A stretch of 23,151 bases of DNA from a virus: IMG/VR virus record IMGVR_UViG_3300032820_000128, positions 1 through 23,151 of that record, one strand, 5' to 3'. Positions 1 through 15,720 of the stretch are shown piece after piece. The translations under genes were made by a program, and so were the position numbers. Position 1 is the first letter of the stretch, and every line of letters starts with the position of its first letter. A model generated the notes under the pieces. The model searched no databases. It worked only from the letters and a program-made list of their open reading frames with translations, and was not told the origin of the DNA.

Positions 1-100
1 AGATAATATCCAACACCAAATAGATACACAGTTAAACCTTATGGGATTTACTGAAGAGTATTTTGAGAAACTTAGGAGAAAAAATGACAAACGAGTATAG
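1..100 (+). CDS. 3' end of an unidentified small protein (partial)
   Basis: The frame beginning at base 2 is open from the window edge to a TAG at 98-100 and gives 32 visible residues ending in KLRRKNDKRV. An internal ATG at 41 exists, but since the frame is open at the edge the gene most likely begins outside the window. The C-terminus is basic. Its last codons overlap the ribosome binding site and start of the next micro-ORF at 84, the same tight packing as the rest of this block. No family is recognised; the coding call rests on the open frame and the packing only. Confidence 0.45.
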   Translation, partial: DNIQHQIDTQLNLMGFTEEYFEKLRRKNDKRV

Positions 101-131
101 AGTAAGCAAAGAGGACAAAGCTAATGAGTAA
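84..131 (+). CDS. 15-residue micro-ORF ending in the repeated EDKANE tail
   Basis: ATG at 84 is preceded by AGGAG with a 5-nt gap (AGGAGaaaaaATG), a better ribosome binding site than many larger genes here have. The peptide is MTNEYRVSKEDKANE. Its last six codons come from the junction repeat at 111-132, whose ATG (124) starts the next gene, so its TAA lies 5 nt inside that gene. It may be a leader peptide that couples translation to the next gene, or what is left of a cassette that lost its body. No function can be assigned, and it could also be non-functional. Confidence 0.35.
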   Translation: MTNEYRVSKEDKANE

Positions 132-363
132 ACCCTTAGACTTTGCCAAAGAAACATGGAACAAAATGGAAAGCATGTACGAAGGAGTACAGGTAATGGA
201 CTCTATCATCATGGGAAGGCCTGTCCGCTATTATGTATTCAGATCTAAAGACGGAATACCTATCATCACACTACACGATCACGAATGGGATATTACCAAA
301 GACAAGAAGCTACACAAAAAGGTAGTGGGAGAAATAATCAACAAGCTAACAGAGGAGTTATAA
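124..363 (+). CDS. Small phage protein of unknown function (79 aa)
   Basis: The start is fixed by the junction repeat (AGGA, 8-nt spacer, ATG-AGT-AAA). The 79-residue product is soluble-looking with mixed charge and no membrane segment or cysteine motif. It begins with an amphipathic stretch (MSKPLDFAKETWNKMESMYEG) that would be helical, then a probable beta-rich centre (RPVRYYVFRSKDGIPIITLHDH) and a Lys-rich helical end. No family is recognised. It ends with TAA at 361-363, just before the second copy of the junction repeat, so it is probably co-translated with the zinc-ribbon genes downstream. Accessory function in the infected host cell is a guess based on neighbourhood alone. Confidence 0.7.
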   Translation: MSKPLDFAKETWNKMESMYEGVQVMDSIIMGRPVRYYVFRSKDGIPIITLHDHEWDITKDKKLHKKVVGEIINKLTEEL

Positions 364-375
364 AGGACAAAGCTA

Positions 376-519
376 ATGAGTAAAGTAACTTGTAACAAGT
401 GTGAAATAGTAGGCTATATAGAATATGATAAAGGAGTTGATGATGCTTATTGTTCTTCTTGTGGAAATTGGCAAAAGAGCAGAGAGTATTCAAGTCCGGA
501 GGACAAAGCTAATGAGTAA
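376..519 (+). CDS. Tiny zinc-ribbon-like protein (47 aa)
   Basis: ATG-AGT-AAA at 376 lies in the junction repeat with AGGA 8 nt upstream. The 47-residue product has two CxxC knuckles, CNKC (residues 6-9) and CSSC (26-29), separated by 16 residues, the layout of a one-zinc ribbon. The C-terminal EDKANE is encoded by the next copy of the junction repeat, and the stop TAA at 517-519 lies within the first codons of the following gene. The cysteines suggest a metal-stabilised fold; a role in binding nucleic acid or a host protein is inference. First of three consecutive genes with this layout. Confidence 0.72.
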   Translation: MSKVTCNKCEIVGYIEYDKGVDDAYCSSCGNWQKSREYSSPEDKANE

Positions 520-643
520 ACTTAGGTGTCCTAACTGTCAGTCAAACCAATGGGGATTTTCAAGCATATTTGGAGTGTTTGACTGTCACAAATGCGAACA
601 TGAGTGGCATGCGGAAGAACTTGAGGACAAAGCTAATGAGTAA
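512..643 (+). CDS. Tiny zinc-ribbon-like protein (43 aa)
   Basis: A longer open frame reaches back to 425, but ATG 512 sits in the junction repeat with a proper AGGA spacing and gives a compact domain, so 512 is chosen. The 43 residues start MSKLRCPNCQ and hold CPNC (6-9) and CHKC (26-29), followed by EHEW, typical of a rubredoxin-like or zinc-ribbon knuckle pair. The C-terminus EDKANE comes from the next junction repeat. It shares first and last residues with the 376 gene but the middle differs, as if different inserts were placed between identical ends. Function unknown. Confidence 0.72.
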   Translation: MSKLRCPNCQSNQWGFSSIFGVFDCHKCEHEWHAEELEDKANE

Positions 644-794
644 ACACATAGACTTAAACAAACCCTTTGCTTTTCATTGTAAAACACATGGCTTGGTATT
701 CGTCAAAGCCAGAGATCATATAGGCGAGAATGAGGAACGAGTTGCCTATGGTTGTTATCGTTGTGGCGATAAAAAAGAACTAGAGGAGTTATAG
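636..794 (+). CDS. Tiny zinc-ribbon-like protein (52 aa)
   Basis: Start ATG 636 lies in the fourth junction repeat. The 52-residue product has CKTH (residues 15-18) and CYRC (40-43), a CxxH...CxxC arrangement suited to one zinc ion, with a central acidic stretch (GENEE). It ends in KKELEEL rather than in EDKANE, so the junction repeat is not used at its 3' end; the next gene begins immediately after its TAG. Third in a row of small metal-binding-like proteins; partner and role unknown. Confidence 0.72.
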   Translation: MSKHIDLNKPFAFHCKTHGLVFVKARDHIGENEERVAYGCYRCGDKKELEEL

Positions 795-956
795 ATGAGT
801 AAGAGTCTTGAAGAATATGTTGAGCATAGAGTACAAACTGCTGACTTAGCTGAATTAAAAGAATTTATGCGAGAACAATTATTAGATTGGTATAACGATT
901 GGGGCGAAGATGAACTAGCAGAAATTGGAATTATCAAGAAGAAGGAGAAAAACTAA
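795..956 (+). CDS. Small acidic helical protein (53 aa)
   Basis: ATG 795 directly follows the TAG of the previous gene and has GAGGAG 6-7 nt upstream within that gene's end. The product is 53 residues, again starting MSK, with a heptad-like acidic helix (LEEYVEHRVQTADLAELKEF) and a Trp-rich centre (LLDWYNDWGEDE). Its stop TAA overlaps the next start in a TAATG junction (954-958). No family recognised. The 3' end AAGAAGGAGAAAAAC doubles as the ribosome binding site of the next gene. Confidence 0.65.
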   Translation: MSKSLEEYVEHRVQTADLAELKEFMREQLLDWYNDWGEDELAEIGIIKKKEKN

Positions 957-1351: not shown

Positions 1352-1483
1352 ATGAGTAAAAAAATGACAAAATTTGAAAGAATTTTATGGGAACACGACT
1401 GTTACCCATTAGACAAAACCACCGCAGACGCAGTAGCAGATGTTAAAAGGACAGAGGACAAAGCTAATTCTTTACAAAGATAA
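1352..1483 (+). CDS. Small protein with a degenerate EDKAN tail (43 aa)
   Basis: ATG-AGT-AAA at 1352 follows AGGAG (1341-1345) with a 6-nt spacer. The product is 43 residues (MSKKMTKFERILWEHDCYPL...). Near its end it reads TEDKANSLQR: the EDKAN is encoded by the degenerate fifth junction repeat at 1454-1468, but the repeat's ATGAGTAA has changed to ATTCTTTA, so this frame runs through to a TAA at 1481-1483. It overlaps the next gene by up to 44 nt. Function unknown. Confidence 0.6.
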   Translation: MSKKMTKFERILWEHDCYPLDKTTADAVADVKRTEDKANSLQR

Positions 1484-1724
1484 ATTCCCTTGCGAGCCTG
1501 TTCTACACTTTGACTCCAAAGACATAGGCACGATAGAATGGACTTGGAGAGCAAGACCCCCAGAGGCTATTTATTGGAAAACATACAAGCCAAAAAAGAG
1601 GGATATCAAAATACTGTCTAAAATAACCCCAGAACAAAGGAAAGAAATCACAAGCGAATTACACAAGGAGATCATTCAAAGCGAACACCCCCTAAAGAAA
1701 AGGAGTAAGCAATATGAGTATTAG
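1440..1724 (+). CDS. Phage protein of unknown function (94 aa; true start uncertain)
   Basis: The open frame begins at ATG 1440, but no Shine-Dalgarno precedes it. Residue 10 is the ATT at 1467 that replaces the ATG of the junction repeat and still has AGGA at the right spacing, so the ancestral start was probably 1467, giving 85 residues. The body contains an aromatic-rich stretch (EWTWRARPPEAIYWKTYKP) followed by a charged helical end (TPEQRKEITSELHKEIIQ). No family recognised. It overlaps the next gene by 11 nt. Confidence 0.6.
   Translation: MLKGQRTKLILYKDKFPCEPVLHFDSKDIGTIEWTWRARPPEAIYWKTYKPKKRDIKILSKITPEQRKEITSELHKEIIQSEHPLKKRSKQYEY
1454..1468 (+). repeat. Degenerate fifth copy of the junction repeat
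   Basis: GAGGACAAAGCTAAT matches the first 15 bases of the junction repeat exactly; the following G of the start codon is T, so ATG has become ATT at 1467-1469. The ATT is in frame with the downstream gene, exactly where the start codon would be. Confidence 0.85.
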
Positions 1725-2040
1725 AAAAAGAGTTTATCTCAACAAGGCGCAAGCAGAGGGATTAGTACAGATATTCCGGAGAAGTCAATTATTGGATCTC
1801 CTGGTCTATGCGGCTATTCATAATAAAAACAAATCTTCACATTACAAACTCTGTATAGACTGTCCCATTGATACCCACCCTAGATTGAGCAACAAGCTAC
1901 AAGATGTCCTGCATACTTTAGTGGATCGACACAGTAAAGCTCTTAAGCAATTAGAATGGGAAGAATACGATGATGCAGAGACATTGGGGCTAACCCCAGA
2001 CTTCAAGGAGTATGTTGAAGAAAAGGAGAAAGAAGAATGA
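1714..2040 (+). CDS. Phage protein of unknown function (108 aa)
   Basis: ATG 1714 follows AAGGAG (about 10 nt) in the end of the preceding gene. The 108-residue product is largely helical, starts with a basic segment (MSIRKRVYLNKAQAEGLVQIFRRSQ), holds one closely spaced cysteine pair (CIDC, residues 47-50) and ends in an acidic Glu-rich tail (EYVEEKEKEE). A single CxxC does not make a zinc site alone. It overlaps the next start by four bases (ATGA at 2037-2040). No family recognised. Confidence 0.65.
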   Translation: MSIRKRVYLNKAQAEGLVQIFRRSQLLDLLVYAAIHNKNKSSHYKLCIDCPIDTHPRLSNKLQDVLHTLVDRHSKALKQLEWEEYDDAETLGLTPDFKEYVEEKEKEE

Positions 2041-2258
2041 GTAAACCAGCAGATATAGAAGAACAATTTGATAAAGCATACGAGATATATACGGATAGAA
2101 AAGGCAGTCAGTTTGCTGTCCATGATGCTGTTGAAGGCGGAATACTCAAGGCTACTTCTTGGCAATGGTGTGAGGCTTGTGAAATTAAGTCGCCAATCTT
2201 GAAAGGTAGCTGCTTAGTTTGTGGGGAAAGTGGAATAGAGGAGAAAGAAAATGACTGA
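2037..2258 (+). CDS. Small zinc-ribbon-like protein (73 aa)
   Basis: ATG 2037 overlaps the previous TGA and follows AAAGGAGAAAG. The 73-residue product begins MSKPADIEEQFDKAYEIY and carries CEAC (residues 45-48) and CLVC (60-63) separated by 11 residues, a zinc-ribbon pattern, followed by an acidic tail. It is the fourth metal-binding-like protein of this + strand block, although its N-terminal half is longer than that of the three tiny ones. Function unknown. Confidence 0.7.
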   Translation: MSKPADIEEQFDKAYEIYTDRKGSQFAVHDAVEGGILKATSWQWCEACEIKSPILKGSCLVCGESGIEEKEND

Positions 2259-2493
2259 GTACACCCACCTAGTTGAAGAAGCAAAGCAACAAGAAGCCTT
2301 TAAAGAATGGAAAAACTATCCCCTGTATCTACAAGCTCAAAATGGCAAGATCGAAATAAAGTACCAGGACGGACGAATTGAGATAGAAGATACAAGCACA
2401 GGCGAAAAAATATATGAGTTCCCAGAAGGCTACGAAGGACAAGCCTACAGGGTAAAATTGTTTGATAGATTCTTAAACTTCTTTACTGGGTAA
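2251..2493 (+). CDS. Small phage protein of unknown function (80 aa)
   Basis: ATG 2251 overlaps the end of the preceding gene by 8 nt and follows GAGGAG. The 80-residue product has an N-terminal helix (LVEEAKQQEAFKEWKN), then a hairpin-like beta section (GKIEIKYQDGRIEIEDTSTGEKIYEF) and an aromatic C-terminus (LFDRFLNFFTG). Last gene of the + strand block: its stop at 2491-2493 overlaps the 3' end of the convergent terminase gene by 11 bp, with no room for an intergenic terminator. Confidence 0.68.
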   Translation: MTEYTHLVEEAKQQEAFKEWKNYPLYLQAQNGKIEIKYQDGRIEIEDTSTGEKIYEFPEGYEGQAYRVKLFDRFLNFFTG

Positions 2494-2998: not shown

Positions 2999-3119
2999 TA
3001 TACCAAAGTAATAAAAAGTACACATTTTTTCTTCTTTATAAGATGTATAACACATAACTTCTGCCATGTGAGGTACAAACCCTTATTTTATCTACCTTTC
3101 AGCTCTCACCTCACACGAC

Positions 3120-3138
3120 CTCACTTTGCAGAAGTGAG
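3120..3138. repeat. Hairpin CTCACTT-TGCAG-AAGTGAG
   Basis: A perfect 7-bp inverted repeat with a 5-nt loop. The same stem and loop recur, longer, at 3301-3323. Confidence 0.85.
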
Positions 3139-3277
3139 CTAGAAAACCCTATAAGGGCTACATTTCCAGCAAAACGCACACGAAAACTGAAAAAATAAAA
3201 AATATTTTGTATTTACTTTTACATTTTGTAGAAAATAGAAGTGAGGTGCGTTTTCTTATATAAGGGTTACTAAAATT

Positions 3278-3362
3278 ATCAATAAAATCAGTAACTTACC
3301 ACCTCACTTTGCAGAAGTGAGGTCAAAATTTTTATCAATAAAATCAATAGCTTAGACCTCAC
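3278..3362. repeat. Direct repeat with 56-bp period (iteron-like)
   Basis: ATCAATAAAATCA occurs at 3278-3290 and 3334-3346, each followed by a TA-CTTA variant and then ACCTCAC or GACCTCAC. The repeats flank the 3301-3323 hairpin. Confidence 0.8.
3301..3323. repeat. Hairpin ACCTCACTT-TGCAG-AAGTGAGGT
   Basis: A perfect 9-bp inverted repeat with a TGCAG loop; second copy of the element at 3120. A lone right half (AAGTGAGGT) stands at 3239-3247. Confidence 0.88.
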
Positions 3363-3396
3363 ACGTACCTTTTTGCAGATGTTATGTGTGATTTAT

Positions 3397-3673: not shown

Positions 3674-3744
3674 ATTTGGATCTTGGTCCCTTAGTGAATA
3701 ATCCCTTGGACACGCAAAAGGGACCAGGATCTATATGGACATAG
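3670..3744 (+). CDS. 24-residue micro-ORF overlapping a hairpin
   Basis: ATG 3670 overlaps the previous stop (ATGA) and has GGAG 9 nt upstream. The product is a 24-residue peptide, neutral, Gly/Pro/Asn-rich. Almost all of the frame lies in the 3679-3731 inverted repeat, and its end overlaps the start of the next gene (ATG 3735). It may be a translated regulatory leader rather than a protein gene. Confidence 0.35.
   Translation: MNLDLGPLVNNPLDTQKGPGSIWT
3679..3731. promoter_or_regulatory. Long inverted repeat upstream of the HTH paralogue pair
   Basis: GATCTTGGTCCCTT (3679-3692) pairs with AAGGGACCAGGATC (3718-3731) over 14 positions with one G.U pair, leaving a 25-nt loop. It ends four bases before ATG 3735, and the AGGA of that gene's ribosome binding site (3725-3728 region) lies in the right arm, so folding would hide it. 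It could also be a two-fold operator. Confidence 0.65.
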
Positions 3745-3977
3745 AAGAATTGGTAGCGAACTCTTATCATTTTTCAAGAGAGAAGATGTTATTAGACTTA
3801 AAGGAATTGAACGAGATTGGTTTCAACAACAGCTTAGTTTGTGAAATCTTGAACATGGACATTCGTGTACTACAAAGATTTTTAAAAGGTAAAAAACCAC
3901 ATGAAGTAAATTTCATAAAACTAAAAGAAGGTTTAGCCGAAATAAAGAAACAACACAAGGACAAGGGCGATGAGTGA
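3735..3977 (+). CDS. HTH-type small protein, paralogue A (80 aa)
   Basis: The start follows AGGA at 5 nt. The 80 residues have an N-terminal segment (IEELVANSYHFSR), a middle with an HTH-like pattern (IGFNNSLVCEILNMDIRVLQRFLKGK: turn, then a helix ending in the 'vLQ' motif) and a conserved C-terminal helix (KPHEVNFIKLKEGLAEIKKQH). A tandem paralogue follows, overlapping by 8 nt. The DNA of the two copies is identical over 39 nt at the front and 62 of 63 nt at the back, while the middle 114 nt have diverged. A DNA-binding regulator is the most likely role, but this is inference from the HTH-like pattern. Confidence 0.72.
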   Translation: MDIEELVANSYHFSREKMLLDLKELNEIGFNNSLVCEILNMDIRVLQRFLKGKKPHEVNFIKLKEGLAEIKKQHKDKGDE

Positions 3978-4206
3978 GATAGAAGAATTGGTAGCGAACT
4001 CTTATCATTTTTCAAGAAAGAAAGTGTTAGAAGAATTAAAAGAGTTAAACGACGCCGGCTTTAGCGATAAGGTGATCTGTCAAATCCTAGAGGTGAATCC
4101 AGCGGTATTACAAAGTTTTAAAGATGGTCATAAACCACATGAAGTAAACTTCATAAAACTAAAAGAAGGTTTAGCCGAAATAAAGAAACAACACGATGAA
4201 AATTGA
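3970..4206 (+). CDS. HTH-type small protein, paralogue B (78 aa)
   Basis: ATG 3970 lies in the end of paralogue A, after AAGGGCG. The 78-residue product has the same ends as A (IEELVANSYHFSRKK..., KPHEVNFIKLKEGLAEIKKQH) but a different middle (DAGFSDKVICQILEVNPAVLQSFKDGH), again fitting an HTH: a turn after Gly-Phe and a second helix around VLQSF. Both copies keep the same length with no indel in the core. Equal ends with different cores suggest that both share a partner or oligomerise together but read different DNA sites; this is inference. It overlaps the next gene by 11 nt. Confidence 0.72.
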   Translation: MSEIEELVANSYHFSRKKVLEELKELNDAGFSDKVICQILEVNPAVLQSFKDGHKPHEVNFIKLKEGLAEIKKQHDEN

Positions 4207-7721: not shown

Positions 7722-10067
7722 CTATAAGTTAGGTTGTAAGTTTATCATCTCCCCCATGGTATTCAAACTGGTTCTGGCCAGGCTGTAAAAGCCTTGGATA
7801 TTATCCGGGAGATAGGCGTCTGCGTATATTACCTTGGGTTCATACCAGGTAGGCTGGGGAGGCAGTTGGGCTTCCCGATAAGCATCAAACCCCGGAACGT
7901 AGCCGAGATACGCTATGAGTGCAGACTCGTCCCCGTATTTCCCTGTTTCTTCTTGCTGTGCAGTACCTTCTTCCTGCTGTTCCTTGATGTTTTGCGCGAT
8001 AATTTTATCCGCTATTTGATCCGCTTCGCTGGCCGTCATCACTCCGCCAACGGCCGTGTCTATTTCGCCTTGCATATCTTGTACTTGTACGTCGGCCATC
8101 ACTACTTGAGGGCTATCATCGAGTCCTGGCATCGGTGTTACCACTACCGAGACATTGGTAACAGCGCCGGTGTCCCCACTCAAAGACAAAATCTGTTGGG
8201 TTTGTACGGAGGCCGAGGCAAACTGATCGGATCTACTGGGGGAACTGCTGGTACTCATGCCTCCGGTTGAGGAGGAAGTCATGGCAGAGGAAGATCCGGT
8301 ACTGCTGGAGGACACTGCTGCGCCTCCGCTGGAGTACCCAGAAGAGCTGCCTGTGGAACCGCTTACGCTATTGGCCGCTGTCCTTATGGTGTTGGCCACT
8401 ACACTTAGAGCCATTTCTCTGGTTAAAGAGCTTTTACCCTCTCCTTCTTCGTCCGCTAATAGTTCTTCCTCTAATTCTTCTTCCTGTTCTATAATTTCTT
8501 CTTCCGCTTCGGCTATCCGCTCTTCTTCTATTTCTTCGTAGATTTCTTCGACGGCTTCTTCTTCAAAGATTTCTTCTTCAGGTTCTTCTTCGTGGGCGAC
8601 CATTTCTTCTTCGGCAACCATTTCTTCTTCAAACCACTCATCCAGTTCTTCCACTGTGTCAAAACTTTCGACAAAAACTTCTTCATAATCTAATTCCTCC
8701 CTCAATATAGTATCGAATTCATAGAGCTCTGTCAGTTCTTCTCCATCGAATACTTCTATATATTCTGTTTCATAATAGTTAGCTTCTTCAAAATCAAATA
8801 TATCCATTTGCAGGTCCAGATCGTCCCAGGTGTCCAAGGGCGAAGTATCCCATTCAATCCAGCCTTCGTTATTAAAGGCTACTTCCGTTCCATACCATTC
8901 ATCTACCTGTGTTTGACCAAATTCCTGTAAATCTATTTCGTACCACTCGGCATCGGTAAAGTACATACCTGCATAGGGATCGTCATCGTAACAATAACTT
9001 GGGTTATCTATACAACTATCGGCAAAAGGATCATCGTAACCATAATCAAATTCATCTTGAGCATAGTAAGCGACTGAGGCTTCTTGTGTATAACCGGGAC
9101 AAAACGGCGCATATTGTGGATCGTCATCGCATTGTTGATCGTCATAAGCACTCCAATAAGAAGGGCATTCCTGACTGTAAAGTTGAGACACATTACATTG
9201 TTGCGTTAAATAAGCTGCTGCATAACCATCACAATCGTCATCATATAAAGAATTTAACGCACATTGTTGAGCTAGATAAGCCACCGCATAGCCAGAACAA
9301 TTAACCGAAGTTAAAGGTACAGTTGCGCATAATGATTGATCGGTGCCATCACCGTATAAAGAACCACCATCTTCCAACAGGGTATTCACAGCGTTACTGC
9401 TGGAGTTCCAATCATAGCTAACACAGGTTCCGGATACATCAGTGGTTCCTGTATTACATTCATCAAAGAAATGGTAAGTGTAAATCTGTGAGGTACTGCC
9501 CTGTTCCCCTATTAAAACATCATGGCTAATAATATCTAATTCACCGTAGCGATACTCATAAGTATCGTTGGGGTATAACCAAACTTCTATACTGTTATCA
9601 GAATTAGCTCGGTTGTATTCCCTCATGTTATACCAACCAAAAATAGTGTAGTCATCAAAGGCTTTGGCTTTCATGGCTGAACCACCATCTTTTATCAGGT
9701 CAGTCCAAAACACAAATAAAGTGTTAGTGTATTGCGGTAATGGGTCTGGAGTGTAGTCCCCACAATAACTGCCTGTCAGGTTAAAGTGTAGACAGCCATT
9801 GGTAGCCATTCTCGCTTTAGTATAATCATTACCATAAAAGGTAAAGGTGAATCCTAAATCAAAGGCTGCTGAAACTGAATCATCGTTTGAGCCTAAACCT
9901 GTTGAGCCTGATGAATTGGCTTGTAAGTCATATAAATCTTGGCTTCCTTCATAGACATAATCTGCACTAAGTGTACCTGCACATAATAAAGCAAATACAG
10001 CCAACCATTTTTTAACCTGCATCATTCCATTCTTTTTTACAACTAAATTTACTTTTTCTAAGACCAT
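7722..10067 (-). CDS. Exported protein with 22-residue Cys repeats and acidic tract (781 aa)
   Basis: ATG 10067 follows AAGGAG at 6 nt; ATG-ATG at 10025/10022 is the alternative. A signal peptide is clear (MQVKKWLAVFALLCAGTLSA, cleavage before DYVYEG about residue 36). Residues 36-210 form a beta-rich domain (LGFTFTFYGNDYTKARMATNGCLHF) like surface domains with a 'fY G..y....v.tNG.l.F' pattern. Then come four 22-residue repeats starting at Cys 247, 269, 291 and 313, aromatic/acidic sequence to about 475, a Glu-rich tract (475-545), a Ser/Gly tract (565-625), and a conserved C-terminal domain (ESALIAYLGYVPGFDAY...YEPKVIYADAYLPDN...LQPNL). It resembles a family seen in marine phages. Adhesion or envelope contact is likely but unproven. 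Confidence 0.82.
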   Translation of the reverse strand: MVLEKVNLVVKKNGMMQVKKWLAVFALLCAGTLSADYVYEGSQDLYDLQANSSGSTGLGSNDDSVSAAFDLGFTFTFYGNDYTKARMATNGCLHFNLTGSYCGDYTPDPLPQYTNTLFVFWTDLIKDGGSAMKAKAFDDYTIFGWYNMREYNRANSDNSIEVWLYPNDTYEYRYGELDIISHDVLIGEQGSTSQIYTYHFFDECNTGTTDVSGTCVSYDWNSSSNAVNTLLEDGGSLYGDGTDQSLCATVPLTSVNCSGYAVAYLAQQCALNSLYDDDCDGYAAAYLTQQCNVSQLYSQECPSYWSAYDDQQCDDDPQYAPFCPGYTQEASVAYYAQDEFDYGYDDPFADSCIDNPSYCYDDDPYAGMYFTDAEWYEIDLQEFGQTQVDEWYGTEVAFNNEGWIEWDTSPLDTWDDLDLQMDIFDFEEANYYETEYIEVFDGEELTELYEFDTILREELDYEEVFVESFDTVEELDEWFEEEMVAEEEMVAHEEEPEEEIFEEEAVEEIYEEIEEERIAEAEEEIIEQEEELEEELLADEEGEGKSSLTREMALSVVANTIRTAANSVSGSTGSSSGYSSGGAAVSSSSTGSSSAMTSSSTGGMSTSSSPSRSDQFASASVQTQQILSLSGDTGAVTNVSVVVTPMPGLDDSPQVVMADVQVQDMQGEIDTAVGGVMTASEADQIADKIIAQNIKEQQEEGTAQQEETGKYGDESALIAYLGYVPGFDAYREAQLPPQPTWYEPKVIYADAYLPDNIQGFYSLARTSLNTMGEMINLQPNL

Positions 10068-11103
10068 CTAAGTCTCCTTGAACATGCTTAGTATCTCTAC
10101 ACTTCTTAATGAATTGCTTTCTTTTCATATCGTAATCAGGTCTATCAGTTCTATTTTCTTTCCACCCTGTAGATGCTTCCTTACCGATCTTGCCCATGTA
10201 AGGACAGGGAGTACCTGCCATTTCCATCGCAGCAAATACTCGTTGATCTTGGCAAAGTATTGAAACTGCTGCCACCTTCATTCCCATATCATAAATGTAT
10301 TTAGATAGTTTCAGCTTTTCACAGTTTTCATCTCGTATAGTTCTGCCCGTTGAGAAACCAAATACCTGACCTTGAAAAGCTCCAGAACGCCCAGTCGTAC
10401 AGAGGTCCTGGCTATAACTCATAATTGATGGAGCGATTGCCGAGGCTGGTGGTGCTTCTGTCTTAATGTCCTGTTCTATTCTTTGCGTGGAACTGGACTC
10501 GTTAATGTTTCGGTTGGTATTGTCCGTAGTTGAATTATTTTCATTTCGGTTGGTATTATCTGTTTTTACATTGGACTCAGATGTGGACTGATTTACATTG
10601 GTATTCGTGTTGTCAGACGTACTTGTTGATGTATTAACATTGGTGTTGGTATTGTCCGTTGCCGAGGTGCTGGTAACATTCTGATTAACTGTTGAATTTA
10701 CTGTTGAATTAGACGTTGACGTATTGACATTCGTATTAGTGTTCGTATTGTCGTTGGTTGAAGTTGCTGTCGTAGTCGCTGTCGAAGTATTTACATTGGT
10801 ATTGGCGTTGGTTGATGTATTGTTATTGTTATTGGTATTGGTCGCTGTCGCTGTCGTTGTTGTCGTGTTGGTATTATTATTGGTATTGGTTGCAGTCGAA
10901 GTCGAAGTATTATTATTGGTGTTGGTATTTACGTTGGTATTACTGGTTGTTGTATTATTCGTTGTGTCCAACGAATTTTGTTCACAATGTTCAGTACCAG
11001 CTTCACAGTCAGGGTTTTCAGGTTCATTTTCTGCTGTGTAAAGGACACCGGTGAAGCTTATCCCCAGACTTACTAACAGGAGTATTTTCTTCGCTGCGTT
11101 CAT
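10012..11103 (-). CDS. Exported Asn/Thr-rich repeat protein with Cys-containing C-terminal domain (363 aa)
   Basis: Residues 4-24 (AKKILLLVSLGISFTGVLYTA) form a signal peptide. A short Cys-bearing section (NPDCEAGTEHCEQ) is followed by about 160 residues of Asn, Thr and Ser repeats (NTNVNT, TSTST, DNTNTN units, 47-205), likely an extended linker. The C-terminal domain (about 216-363) has APSIMSYSQDLCTTG, GFSTGRTIRDENCEKLKLSKYIYDMGMKVAAVSILCQD and MAGTPCPYMGKIG, with regularly placed cysteines; it resembles a family frequent in marine phages, function not known. The gene overlaps the next one by 56 nt. A TTCGCA-17-TATAAT promoter puts the RNA start 2 nt before its ATG. Confidence 0.8.
   Translation of the reverse strand: MNAAKKILLLVSLGISFTGVLYTAENEPENPDCEAGTEHCEQNSLDTTNNTTTSNTNVNTNTNNNTSTSTATNTNNNTNTTTTTATATNTNNNNNTSTNANTNVNTSTATTTATSTNDNTNTNTNVNTSTSNSTVNSTVNQNVTSTSATDNTNTNVNTSTSTSDNTNTNVNQSTSESNVKTDNTNRNENNSTTDNTNRNINESSSTQRIEQDIKTEAPPASAIAPSIMSYSQDLCTTGRSGAFQGQVFGFSTGRTIRDENCEKLKLSKYIYDMGMKVAAVSILCQDQRVFAAMEMAGTPCPYMGKIGKEASTGWKENRTDRPDYDMKRKQFIKKCRDTKHVQGDLDGLRKSKFSCKKEWNDAG
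10489..10965 (-). repeat. Low-complexity coding tract (Asn/Thr/Ser codon repeats)
   Basis: About 477 bp of imperfect short repeats built from AAT/AAC and ACA/ACG/ACT codons (on the + strand seen as repeated TTGGTATTGGT/ATTGTC units). All are in frame with the 363-aa gene. Such tracts can change length by slippage. Confidence 0.9.
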
Positions 11104-14073: not shown

Positions 14074-14129
14074 GGACTCCGACATTTTTGACACCATGCT
14101 TCTTTGTTGGAGTCCTCCCTCTGGGGACT
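14074..14129 (+). promoter_or_regulatory. Mutually exclusive hairpins in the primase leader
   Basis: GGACTCCGAC (14074-14083) pairs with GTTGGAGTCC (14106-14115) over 10 positions with one G.U pair. The part AGTCC (14111-14115, extended to 14117) can instead pair with GGGGACT (14123-14129), which contains the Shine-Dalgarno of ATG 14131. Only one of the two can form. Confidence 0.55.
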
Positions 14130-14130
14130 T

Positions 14131-15720
14131 ATGGAAAAAAATGCACAAAAATTTATGCAGGTATTCTCCGGACTGGAAAGAGCCCACGGCATCTATGAAA
14201 TAACAGGACAAAAGACTACCGCCAAAGGCATAAAAAAGGAGGGGCATGGACGCACCTTGCAAGAACCACTTACCGTAGATGTATGGCAACAACATCTTGA
14301 AGGAGAAATTTCTATCGGGGTAGTTCCCCTTAAAGATGATGAGACTTGTCAGTGGGGATGTATCGATGTGGACGAGTATCCTATTGATATTAAACAACTT
14401 TTAAAGACTCTTAAGGATATGTCATTGCCCCTAATCCCGTGTATGACTAAATCGGGAGGAGTACATTTGTTCTTATTCACTAAAAAGCCTATACCGGCTT
14501 TTAAAATACAAAGCAAATTAGAAGAAATTGCTGCTGCCATGGGAAGAACAGGGGATGAAATATTTCCTAAGCAGTATGAATGGTCTAAACAACTGCCCAA
14601 AGAAAAACAAACAGGGAACTGGCTCAACATGCCCTACTTTGCTGGGGAAGATACTACTCGATATGCACTCAATGTAGAGGGAGAAGCTGCAACTATTGAA
14701 GAGTTTTTTCAACTGGTAAAGAAAAAGGCCATTACTGAAAAACAAATAGACGAATATATCCCGGTTAAGAAAAACAGGAAAAAGCATGTTACCAAAGGAA
14801 ACGGCCTTTGGGATGAGGCTCCCCCCTGTTTGGTCCACATGAAACTCAATGGTATTCCAGAAGGCATGAGAAATAATGCCCTTCTTAACTACGGCGTTTT
14901 TTTGCGTAAGGCCTTTCCGGAGGGAGAGGAATGGAAAGATAAACTACAAGAAATTAATAAAACAGTATGTGCAAAGGCCCTATCACACAGTGAACTCAGC
15001 ACCATTATTCAAAGCTTGGAAAAAACAGAGTACCGCTATCAGTGCAGTAAGCCACCGCTAGTAGATTTTTGTCAAAGTGGTGTTTGTGTTACACGCCGTT
15101 ATGGCATAGATGCTTCGGAAAGGGAGCCAAATTTTGGAGGCTTACGAAAATATTTAACAGATCCACCACTTTGGCATTTGGACGTGGATGGTAGGACCAT
15201 TGTGCTGGATACTAAACAATTGCATAACTTCTCCATGTTTCAACAGCGCTGCATGGAAGTTTTAAATCAATGCCCCCCTGACATTAAAAAATCGGATTGG
15301 GTATCTCGACTTAATATATTACTACAAGAAGTACAGGAAGTAGATGTTCCTTCCGACATGACAAAGCACGGTCTTTTACAAGAAGCTATCTATGAGTTTT
15401 GCAGACTATCCGAATCTTTATCTAAACTGTCCATCGCTTCCAGTGGAGTATATCGACACGAAGAAGATGGAGAAAACCAATGGTGGTTTACTGGTCGGGA
15501 TGCCGTACTTTTTATTCAAGAGTTTAAGAAAATGCGTCATATTAAAGAAGCAGAAGTATTTACTGAACTGAAAGAGATGGGAGCATTGTCTCTTTCTAAA
15601 TGGATAGATAAAGGCATAGGAAATAAAAGAGTATGGGTATTGGATATACAGGAATTAGACGAGGACTCTATCATTGCAACTGATTTTAAAATAGCAGAGG
15701 AGCCAAAGGCATGGGAATAA
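14131..15720 (+). CDS. Archaeo-eukaryotic-type primase (TOTE-like)
   Basis: The frame opens at 14104, but ATG 14131 follows GGGGA at 4-5 nt. The 529-residue product has the AEP catalytic motifs: GCIDVDEYP (Asp79, Asp81), KSGGVHLFLF (Ser108-His112) and a following Arg/Lys-rich section, then WLNMPYF (164-170). This matches the primase module known from TOTE conflict systems and many phages. Further on are PPCL (Cys233), GIPEGMRNNALLNYG and CSKPPLVDFCQSGVC (Cys305, 314, 319), a probable zinc site. The last ~190 residues hold no known motif. It makes primers for the family A polymerase downstream; no DnaG-type or T7-type primase is present. Confidence 0.88.
   Translation: MEKNAQKFMQVFSGLERAHGIYEITGQKTTAKGIKKEGHGRTLQEPLTVDVWQQHLEGEISIGVVPLKDDETCQWGCIDVDEYPIDIKQLLKTLKDMSLPLIPCMTKSGGVHLFLFTKKPIPAFKIQSKLEEIAAAMGRTGDEIFPKQYEWSKQLPKEKQTGNWLNMPYFAGEDTTRYALNVEGEAATIEEFFQLVKKKAITEKQIDEYIPVKKNRKKHVTKGNGLWDEAPPCLVHMKLNGIPEGMRNNALLNYGVFLRKAFPEGEEWKDKLQEINKTVCAKALSHSELSTIIQSLEKTEYRYQCSKPPLVDFCQSGVCVTRRYGIDASEREPNFGGLRKYLTDPPLWHLDVDGRTIVLDTKQLHNFSMFQQRCMEVLNQCPPDIKKSDWVSRLNILLQEVQEVDVPSDMTKHGLLQEAIYEFCRLSESLSKLSIASSGVYRHEEDGENQWWFTGRDAVLFIQEFKKMRHIKEAEVFTELKEMGALSLSKWIDKGIGNKRVWVLDIQELDEDSIIATDFKIAEEPKAWE

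What the first reader, a model, noticed from the sequence alone, without database searches (positions are those of the whole stretch)
111..644. A repeated 20-nt start/stop cassette joins consecutive small genes
Four nearly exact copies of GAGGACAAAGCTAATGAGTA each provide ribosome binding site plus MSK start for one gene; in three copies the same bases, read in another frame, also encode the EDKANE-stop tail of the gene before. The genes between the copies differ. This looks like a modular array in which gene bodies can be exchanged between identical junctions by homologous recombination, with built-in start/stop overlap that keeps translation coupled. I know of no named system of this type.
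Basis: partly seen in the sequence, partly recalled or inferred. Interest (0 to 1): 0.8.

Follow-up and report, generated by a model that had tools for sequence, protein, structure and literature searches.

The report
Start/stop linkers joining swappable phage genes
A marine phage carries a row of tiny genes joined by the same short DNA link, which ends one gene and starts the next; related phages have different genes at the same joints, so single genes are gained, lost and swapped without breaking their neighbours.

Summary
Three exact copies and one 1-mismatch copy of GAGGACAAAGCTAATGAGTA lie at 111, 363, 499 and 623, all at gene starts, with a truncated fifth at 1454-1468 (ATG changed to ATT). 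The exact 18-mer core occurs in only one other contig of IMG/VR.
The exchange idea holds up. In 35 non-redundant related marine phage arrays, homology breaks at start codons (65-71% of breakpoints versus 12.6% expected), and 78 of 88 short homologous segments have unrelated neighbours on both sides. Gene B (376-519) is 92-94% identical in two other phages, whose linkers differ and give the protein a different tail. Occupied and empty sites exist; a few inserts are flanked by 15-26 bp linker repeats. Other genomes carry other linkers. Similar linkers cluster among near-adjacent genes, which a genome-wide translation signal alone does not predict.
Not shown: the recombination enzyme, translational coupling, or that linker-linker homology is the main route (clear flanking repeats in about 8% of 76 gain/loss events). 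Related precedents: mycobacteriophage start-associated sequences, T4 PeSL cassettes, lambda's nin region. I rate it a new variant of a known kind.

The parts
111..130 (+). linker copy 1 (exact GAGGACAAAGCTAATGAGTA); start of gene A, tail of mini-ORF 84-131
363..382 (+). linker copy 2 (1 mismatch); start of gene B; fused directly behind gene A's GAGGAGTTATAA end
499..518 (+). linker copy 3 (exact); tail EDKANE* of gene B and start of gene C, 8-nt overlap
623..642 (+). linker copy 4 (exact); tail EDKANE* of gene C and start of gene D, 8-nt overlap
1454..1468 (+). truncated fifth linker copy GAGGACAAAGCTAAT, with ATT where the other copies have ATG, at the end of gene H and old start of gene I
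   Evidence: (family D2)
84..131 (+). 15-codon mini-ORF MTNEYRVSKEDKANE ending in linker copy 1; possibly the remnant of a cassette that lost its body (inference)
   Evidence: read from sequence
124..363 (+). gene A (79 aa), backbone gene; ortholog in L001 starts MVNPLDF with a different linker
376..519 (+). gene B (47 aa, two CxxC motifs), cassette; 92-94% nt identical in L181 and L182 with other linkers and neighbours
512..643 (+). gene C (43 aa, zinc-ribbon-like), cassette
636..794 (+). gene D (52 aa), cassette; 93% nt identical over 623-788 in L180, whose linkers on both sides differ
351..362 (+). AGAGGAGTTATA at the end of gene A: the junction into which cassettes B-C-D are inserted (empty in L001, L106, L107 and others)
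   Evidence: (D10)
782..793 (+). second copy of AGAGGAGTTATA at the end of gene D, on the far side of the insert
   Evidence: (D10)
795..956 (+). gene E (53 aa, DUF7326-like), extra relative to L001
956..1192 (+). gene F (78 aa), found at the same place in L126, L128 and L130, absent in L001
1189..1341 (+). gene G (50 aa), backbone
1352..1483 (+). gene H (43 aa), cassette between G and I; absent in L001, present in L110/L168 with another 3' junction
1440..1724 (+). gene I (backbone); original ATG now ATT, so either an upstream start at 1440 or a rare ATT start
1714..2040 (+). gene J (108 aa), backbone
2037..2258 (+). gene K (73 aa), cassette between J and L; absent in L001; flanked by AGGAGAAAGAA repeats at 2024-2034 and 2239-2249
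2251..2493 (+). gene L (80 aa), backbone, convergent with the terminase small subunit gene

Best explanation
This is the left part of a hypervariable array of small accessory genes in a marine phage distantly related to the HTVC023P/HTVC027P pelagiphages. The genes are packed head to tail. Each joint is a 15-25 nt linker holding, in overlapping frames, the last codons and stop of the upstream gene and the Shine-Dalgarno, ATG and first codons of the downstream gene. Genes enter and leave the array one or a few at a time, with breakpoints inside the linker (at the Shine-Dalgarno or the start codon), so an exchange leaves the upstream gene with a stop and the downstream gene with a ribosome site. 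When a cassette enters at a linker, or a linker-gene unit is locally duplicated, neighbouring linkers become identical, giving the four copies here; recombination between copies could then delete or exchange bodies precisely. Shown: decoupling of body and linker, breakpoint positions, occupied/empty sites, local clustering of like linkers. Inferred: recombination by short homology during coinfection, reuse of linkers as homology, translational coupling.
For: Gene B body in three phages with three linkers and tails PEDKANE/PEEKS/PEETT; gene D body with other linkers in L180, alignment 623-788 covering just that gene. Breakpoints of >=85% identical segments fall at -20..+8 of a start codon in 65% (left) and 71% (right) versus 12.6% for random array positions; 78 of 88 short homologous segments have non-homologous neighbours on both sides. 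Empty/occupied sites at A-G, G-I, I-J and J-L, with a perfect 24+ nt flanking repeat at I-J in L110/L168 and a 17-nt one at J-L in L126. Non-orthologous linkers match (<=2 of 18 mismatches) within a genome 4.7 times more often than between genomes (56 pairs; shuffles mean 13, max 24); the matching pairs lie 2.95 genes apart versus 7.5 in shuffles. Control arrays (T4, lambda nin, HTVC027P, DSL-LC04, psg01) have 1 such pair in 2,121.
Against: Only about 8% of 76 gain/loss events show a clear (>=11 nt) repeat between the two flanking linkers, against 1.8% for random junction pairs, so linker-linker homology cannot be shown to be the main route. For shared bodies, the 3' junction is closer to another junction of its own genome than to the same gene's junction elsewhere in only 26 of 51 cases. 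Linkers are short compared with the 23-27 bp minimal pairing segment reported for Red-beta (PMC3945230). No RecT or ERF annealing protein was found in 13 related records, and an AAA_24 (Sak4-like) protein in 1.
Confidence: 0.68

Rival explanations
1. Ordinary phage mosaicism: illegitimate recombination happens anywhere, and only joints at gene boundaries survive selection. The linkers look alike only because every small gene needs a ribosome site and a tight stop/start overlap.
For: Most gain/loss events have no long flanking repeat. A Shine-Dalgarno read in frame as GAG is common in these arrays (202/295) but also in T4 (9 of 13), so part of the linker's form is generic.
Against: Non-Shine-Dalgarno positions are also identical (ACAAAGC, TCCGAC); like linkers sit next to each other; other tightly packed phages have almost none; linker-plus-gene-tail repeats of 17-26 nt flank some inserts; the exact 18-mer is absent from 419 junctions of the other genomes.
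Confidence: 0.2
2. A regulatory start-associated element, as proposed for SAS of cluster K mycobacteriophages: the repeat binds a phage or host factor or an RNA to control translation of a set of genes, and is kept alike by selection or gene conversion. This could hold together with cassette exchange.
For: Copies lie at gene starts only (for the GGAGTCCGACAATG linker 87 of 90 near-copies in 34 contigs are at called gene starts); conservation reaches beyond the Shine-Dalgarno.
Against: Different linker families coexist in one array (e.g. L181) in contiguous blocks; orthologous genes carry different linkers in sister phages (gene A: window versus L001); similar linkers cluster locally.
Confidence: 0.2
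3. Plain tandem gene duplication followed by fast divergence of the bodies, with the junctions remaining alike.
For: B, C and D all look zinc-ribbon-like; B and C align weakly (35%, including the shared ends); tandem paralogues do occur (window 3735-3977 and 3970-4206; L182 2875-3260).
Against: A-B and B-D show no similarity; B and D occur singly in other phages with 92-94% identity, so their bodies are old and separate while the linkers are identical.
Confidence: 0.08

Closest known systems
Start-Associated Sequences (SAS) of cluster K mycobacteriophages (PMC3203893)
   Same: Short repeated sequence (13 bp, 11-19 copies) including the Shine-Dalgarno just before starts of unrelated non-structural genes; upstream stop codon sometimes inside; different gene families carry it in different phages.
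   Different: SAS genes mostly follow intergenic gaps over 50 bp; SAS is one consensus across the cluster and about half have an inverted repeat. Here the repeat is coding on both sides, includes ATG and MSK codons, varies by genome, and cassette gain/loss at it is documented.
PeSL promoter-stem-loop cassettes of T4-like phages (Arbiol 2010, Comeau 2014; known here only through PMC4503421)
   Same: Repeated intergenic element proposed to mediate shuffling of small genes between related phages.
   Different: PeSLs are transcription elements (early promoter plus terminator stem-loop) between genes; these linkers are translation start/stop overlaps with no gap and no stem-loop.
nin region of lambdoid phages ('chain of interlinked genes', Kroger and Hobom 1982, cited in PMC8022706)
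   Same: Tightly packed small accessory genes with ATGA stop/start overlaps.
   Different: In lambda I found no repeated 18-nt junction (0 of 36 pairs); the nin overlap is the 4-nt ATGA, not a 20-nt repeated linker.

Membership tests
Cluster K SAS | Repeated sequence containing the Shine-Dalgarno immediately before start codons of different genes | tested here: met
Cluster K SAS | Consensus GGGATAGGAGCCC (up to 2 deviations) | tested here: not met
   The repeat is GAGGACAAAGCTAATGAGTA; by inspection it does not match the 13-bp consensus
Cluster K SAS | Associated genes usually separated from the upstream gene by >50 bp | tested here: not met
   12-nt gap, 8-nt overlap and 8-nt overlap at the window copies 363, 499 and 623; in the wider set overlaps of 4, 8 and 1 nt dominate
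T4 PeSL | Early promoter plus terminator stem-loop in the intergenic repeat | tested here: not met
   The repeat is 20 nt, overlaps coding sequence on both sides and no inverted repeat was listed in it
T4 PeSL | Gene shuffling between related phages at the repeat | tested here: met
Lambdoid nin region | Chain of accessory genes with overlapping stop/start codons | tested here: met
   69% of adjacent pairs overlap by at least 1 nt
Lambdoid nin region | Homologous Nin genes between P and Q of a lambdoid early operon | tested here: not met
   No Nin-like family among Pfam/PHROGs results; the array faces the terminase small subunit gene

The most novel reading that the evidence does not exclude
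The linkers are evolved exchange sites: genome-specific, self-propagating start/stop adaptors that let a phage load, drop and reorder single genes as standard parts, with every insertion creating a further linker that can be used again.
Probability: 0.3. Interest if true: 0.8.

Novelty: new variant of a known kind. Interest (0 to 1): 0.58.

Why it matters
How phages gain and lose single small genes without breaking packed operons is usually explained by random joints plus selection. These arrays give concrete joints, empty and occupied sites and several linker families, so the question can be tested by counting crossovers at linkers. They also show that the N- and C-terminal residues of many small phage proteins belong to the joint, not the gene, which matters for annotation and for reading conserved tails as functional.

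Tried and rejected
Reading frame of the Shine-Dalgarno relative to the upstream gene as a design rule: strong in these arrays (202/295 in one phase) but similar in T4 (9 of 13), so dropped as evidence. Identifying the recombinase: RecT and ERF profiles gave nothing in 13 related records, AAA_24 one hit; the window itself has a PD-(D/E)XK exonuclease (phrog_298) and a UvrD-like helicase, which do not settle it. First junction comparison with a window reaching too far upstream and including orthologues gave only about 2-fold enrichment; repeated with orthologues removed. DNA-level relatives among sequenced phage isolates: none. Search for cassettes E, H and K elsewhere found only H in L168/L169. 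The rule 'the linker always belongs to the genome' fails in about half the cases: often the break is at the start codon and the upstream gene keeps its linker. Assembly artefact: related contigs repeat the principle, but the window's own A-B-C-D order is seen only once.

Full report
WHAT WAS CHECKED. The 20-mer GAGGACAAAGCTAATGAGTA is at 111, 499 and 623 exactly and at 363 with one mismatch. It has no other copy within 3 mismatches in the window on either strand, and dinucleotide shuffles give none. Genes A (124-363), B (376-519), C (512-643) and D (636-794) each start at the ATG inside a copy with MSK. Copies 499 and 623 end B and C as ...EDKANE-stop with an 8-nt overlap. Copy 111 does the same for a 15-codon frame at 84-131. 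At copy 363 gene A has already stopped. A truncated fifth copy is at 1454-1468. The 18-mer core is found in one other IMG/VR contig, L001, and in 0 of 419 junctions from the other related phages.

WHOSE GENOME. The window is an IMG/VR virus record of 23,151 bases. Its DNA polymerase is about 51-53% identical to those of Pelagibacter phages HTVC023P and HTVC027P, phage 023Pt_psg01 and phage DSL-LC04. The small genes converge on a terminase small subunit gene (Pfam Terminase_2; matches). No isolate matches the array at DNA level.

RELATIVES DIFFER BY WHOLE GENES AT THE JOINTS. A search with the terminase small subunit gave 80 loci besides the window. Close relatives share a backbone (A, G, I, J, L in window letters) and differ in 1-5 genes between backbone genes. 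L001, 97% identical in the terminase protein, has A directly followed by G (the window has B-F between), G directly by I (the window has H) and J directly by L (the window has K). The A-G joint GAGGAGTTATA is empty in L001, L106, L107, L110 and others, holds B-C-D-E-F in the window, two other genes plus an F homologue in L123/L124/L126/L128, and an F homologue in L130. In both the window (782-793) and L126 a second copy of GAGGAGTTATAG stands on the far side of the extra genes. At I-J, L110 and L168 carry an extra gene flanked by a perfect repeat of CAACCAAAAGTGAGGACACTATGA. At J-L, L123/L124/L126 carry an extra gene flanked by AGGAGAAAGAAGAATGA, and L130 shows the empty site.

BODY AND LINKER ARE SEPARABLE. 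A joined query of B, C and D found B in L181, L182 and L183 and D in L180. The matches cover one gene each: window 623-788 to L180 (92.8%), 369-521 to L181 (93.5%), 360-520 to L182 (91.9%), 391-519 to L183 (82.2%). After the B body the sequences part at the Shine-Dalgarno: window ...CCGGAGGACAAAGCTAATGAGTAAA (tail PEDKANE), L181 ...CCAGAGGAGAAAAGCTAATGAATAAA (PEEKS), L182 ...CCAGAGGAGACAACATGAGTGAA (PEETT, the same linker standing again at its next joint). D ends TTAGAGGAGAAAAGCAATGACTGAATAC in L180 and CTAGAGGAGTTATAGATGAGTAAG in the window. Gene A starts MSKPLDF after this linker in the window and MVNPLDF after GAGAGGAAAAGCTAATGG in L001. So first and last residues of these proteins come from the joint.

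HOW GENERAL. In 35 non-redundant arrays and 439 tight joints, linkers fall into families, each next to several or many unrelated genes: GGAGAAAAGCTAATG (42 joints, 19 genomes), AGGAGTCCGACAATGAGT (31 joints, 14 genomes), AGGAGAAAGCTAATGAGT (16 joints, 8 genomes; the window's variant has C for G), GGAGGTGGCGTAATGG, GAGGAGTTATAG-ATG. Non-orthologous joints agree within 2 of 18 positions in 56 of 3,014 same-genome pairs and 357 of 90,535 cross-genome pairs; label shuffles give 13 with a maximum of 24. Matching pairs are near neighbours (2.95 genes apart, 7.5 in shuffles). Five control regions (T4, lambda, HTVC027P, DSL-LC04, psg01) have 1 such pair in 2,121. A collection scan for GGAGTCCGACAATGARYAA hit 35 stretches; in the 34 newly fetched ones 87 of 90 near-copies are at called gene starts and 23 contigs have two or more. 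Homology of at least 85% between arrays breaks within -20..+8 of a start codon in 65% and 71% of cases versus 12.6% for random positions; 78 of 88 short segments have unrelated neighbours on both sides. Gene calls come from my own simple caller and carry some error; a few of the segments lie in larger genes outside the small-gene array.

LIMITS. Of 76 occupied/empty events only about 8% have a repeat of 11 nt or more between the two flanking joints (random pairs 1.8%). In 51 shared bodies with different followers, the joint resembles another joint of its own genome more than the same gene's joint elsewhere in 26; in many of the rest the break is at the start codon. So identical linkers probably mark recent or local events, while many breaks need no more than a Shine-Dalgarno-sized match, and selection must remove frame-breaking products. 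Relaxed recombination by phage annealing proteins is a known route, with a 23-27 bp minimal segment for Red-beta (PMC3945230), but no RecT or ERF was found in related records and an AAA_24 protein only once. Translational coupling is inferred from the overlaps.

COMPARISON. Start-associated sequences of cluster K mycobacteriophages are the nearest named thing, but have another consensus and sit mostly after gaps over 50 bp. T4 PeSLs share the shuffling idea but are promoter/terminator cassettes (known here through PMC4503421). Lambda's nin genes share the overlaps (PMC8022706) but show no repeated joint in my test. Membership in none of these is claimed; the system works like a translation-level counterpart of PeSLs.

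Noticed in passing
window 3047-3392: Repeated and inverted motifs (CCTCACTTTGCAGAAGTGAG at about 3118 and 3301; ATAACACATAACTTCTGC / GCAGATGTTATGTGTGAT) in an AT-rich gap between the leftward terminase small subunit gene and rightward genes, conserved in L001; could be an operator, promoter or replication origin region.
   Followed up: no
window 3735-3977 and 3970-4206: Tandem paralogous genes (MDIEELVANSYHFSRE.. / MSEIEELVANSYHFSRK..) joined by AAGGACAAGGGCGATGAGTGA, a joint that resembles the one before gene D in L180 (GAGGACAAGGGCGATGA).
   Followed up: partly
window 1467-1469: Gene I's ancestral ATG reads ATT behind a well-spaced Shine-Dalgarno; L123, L124 and L126 (AAGGAGAAAGCTGATT) and L110/L168 (CCGATT) also have ATT. 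Possible ATT initiation, or use of an upstream start.
   Followed up: partly
window 14104-15720: Primase-like gene matching Pfam AEP-TOTE (TOTE conflict system primase domain) and a PHROGs primase family.
   Followed up: no
window 7722-11103 (- strand): Two neighbouring genes for low-complexity proteins: 781 aa rich in acidic residues and serine, and 363 aa with long Asn/Thr repeats.
   Followed up: no
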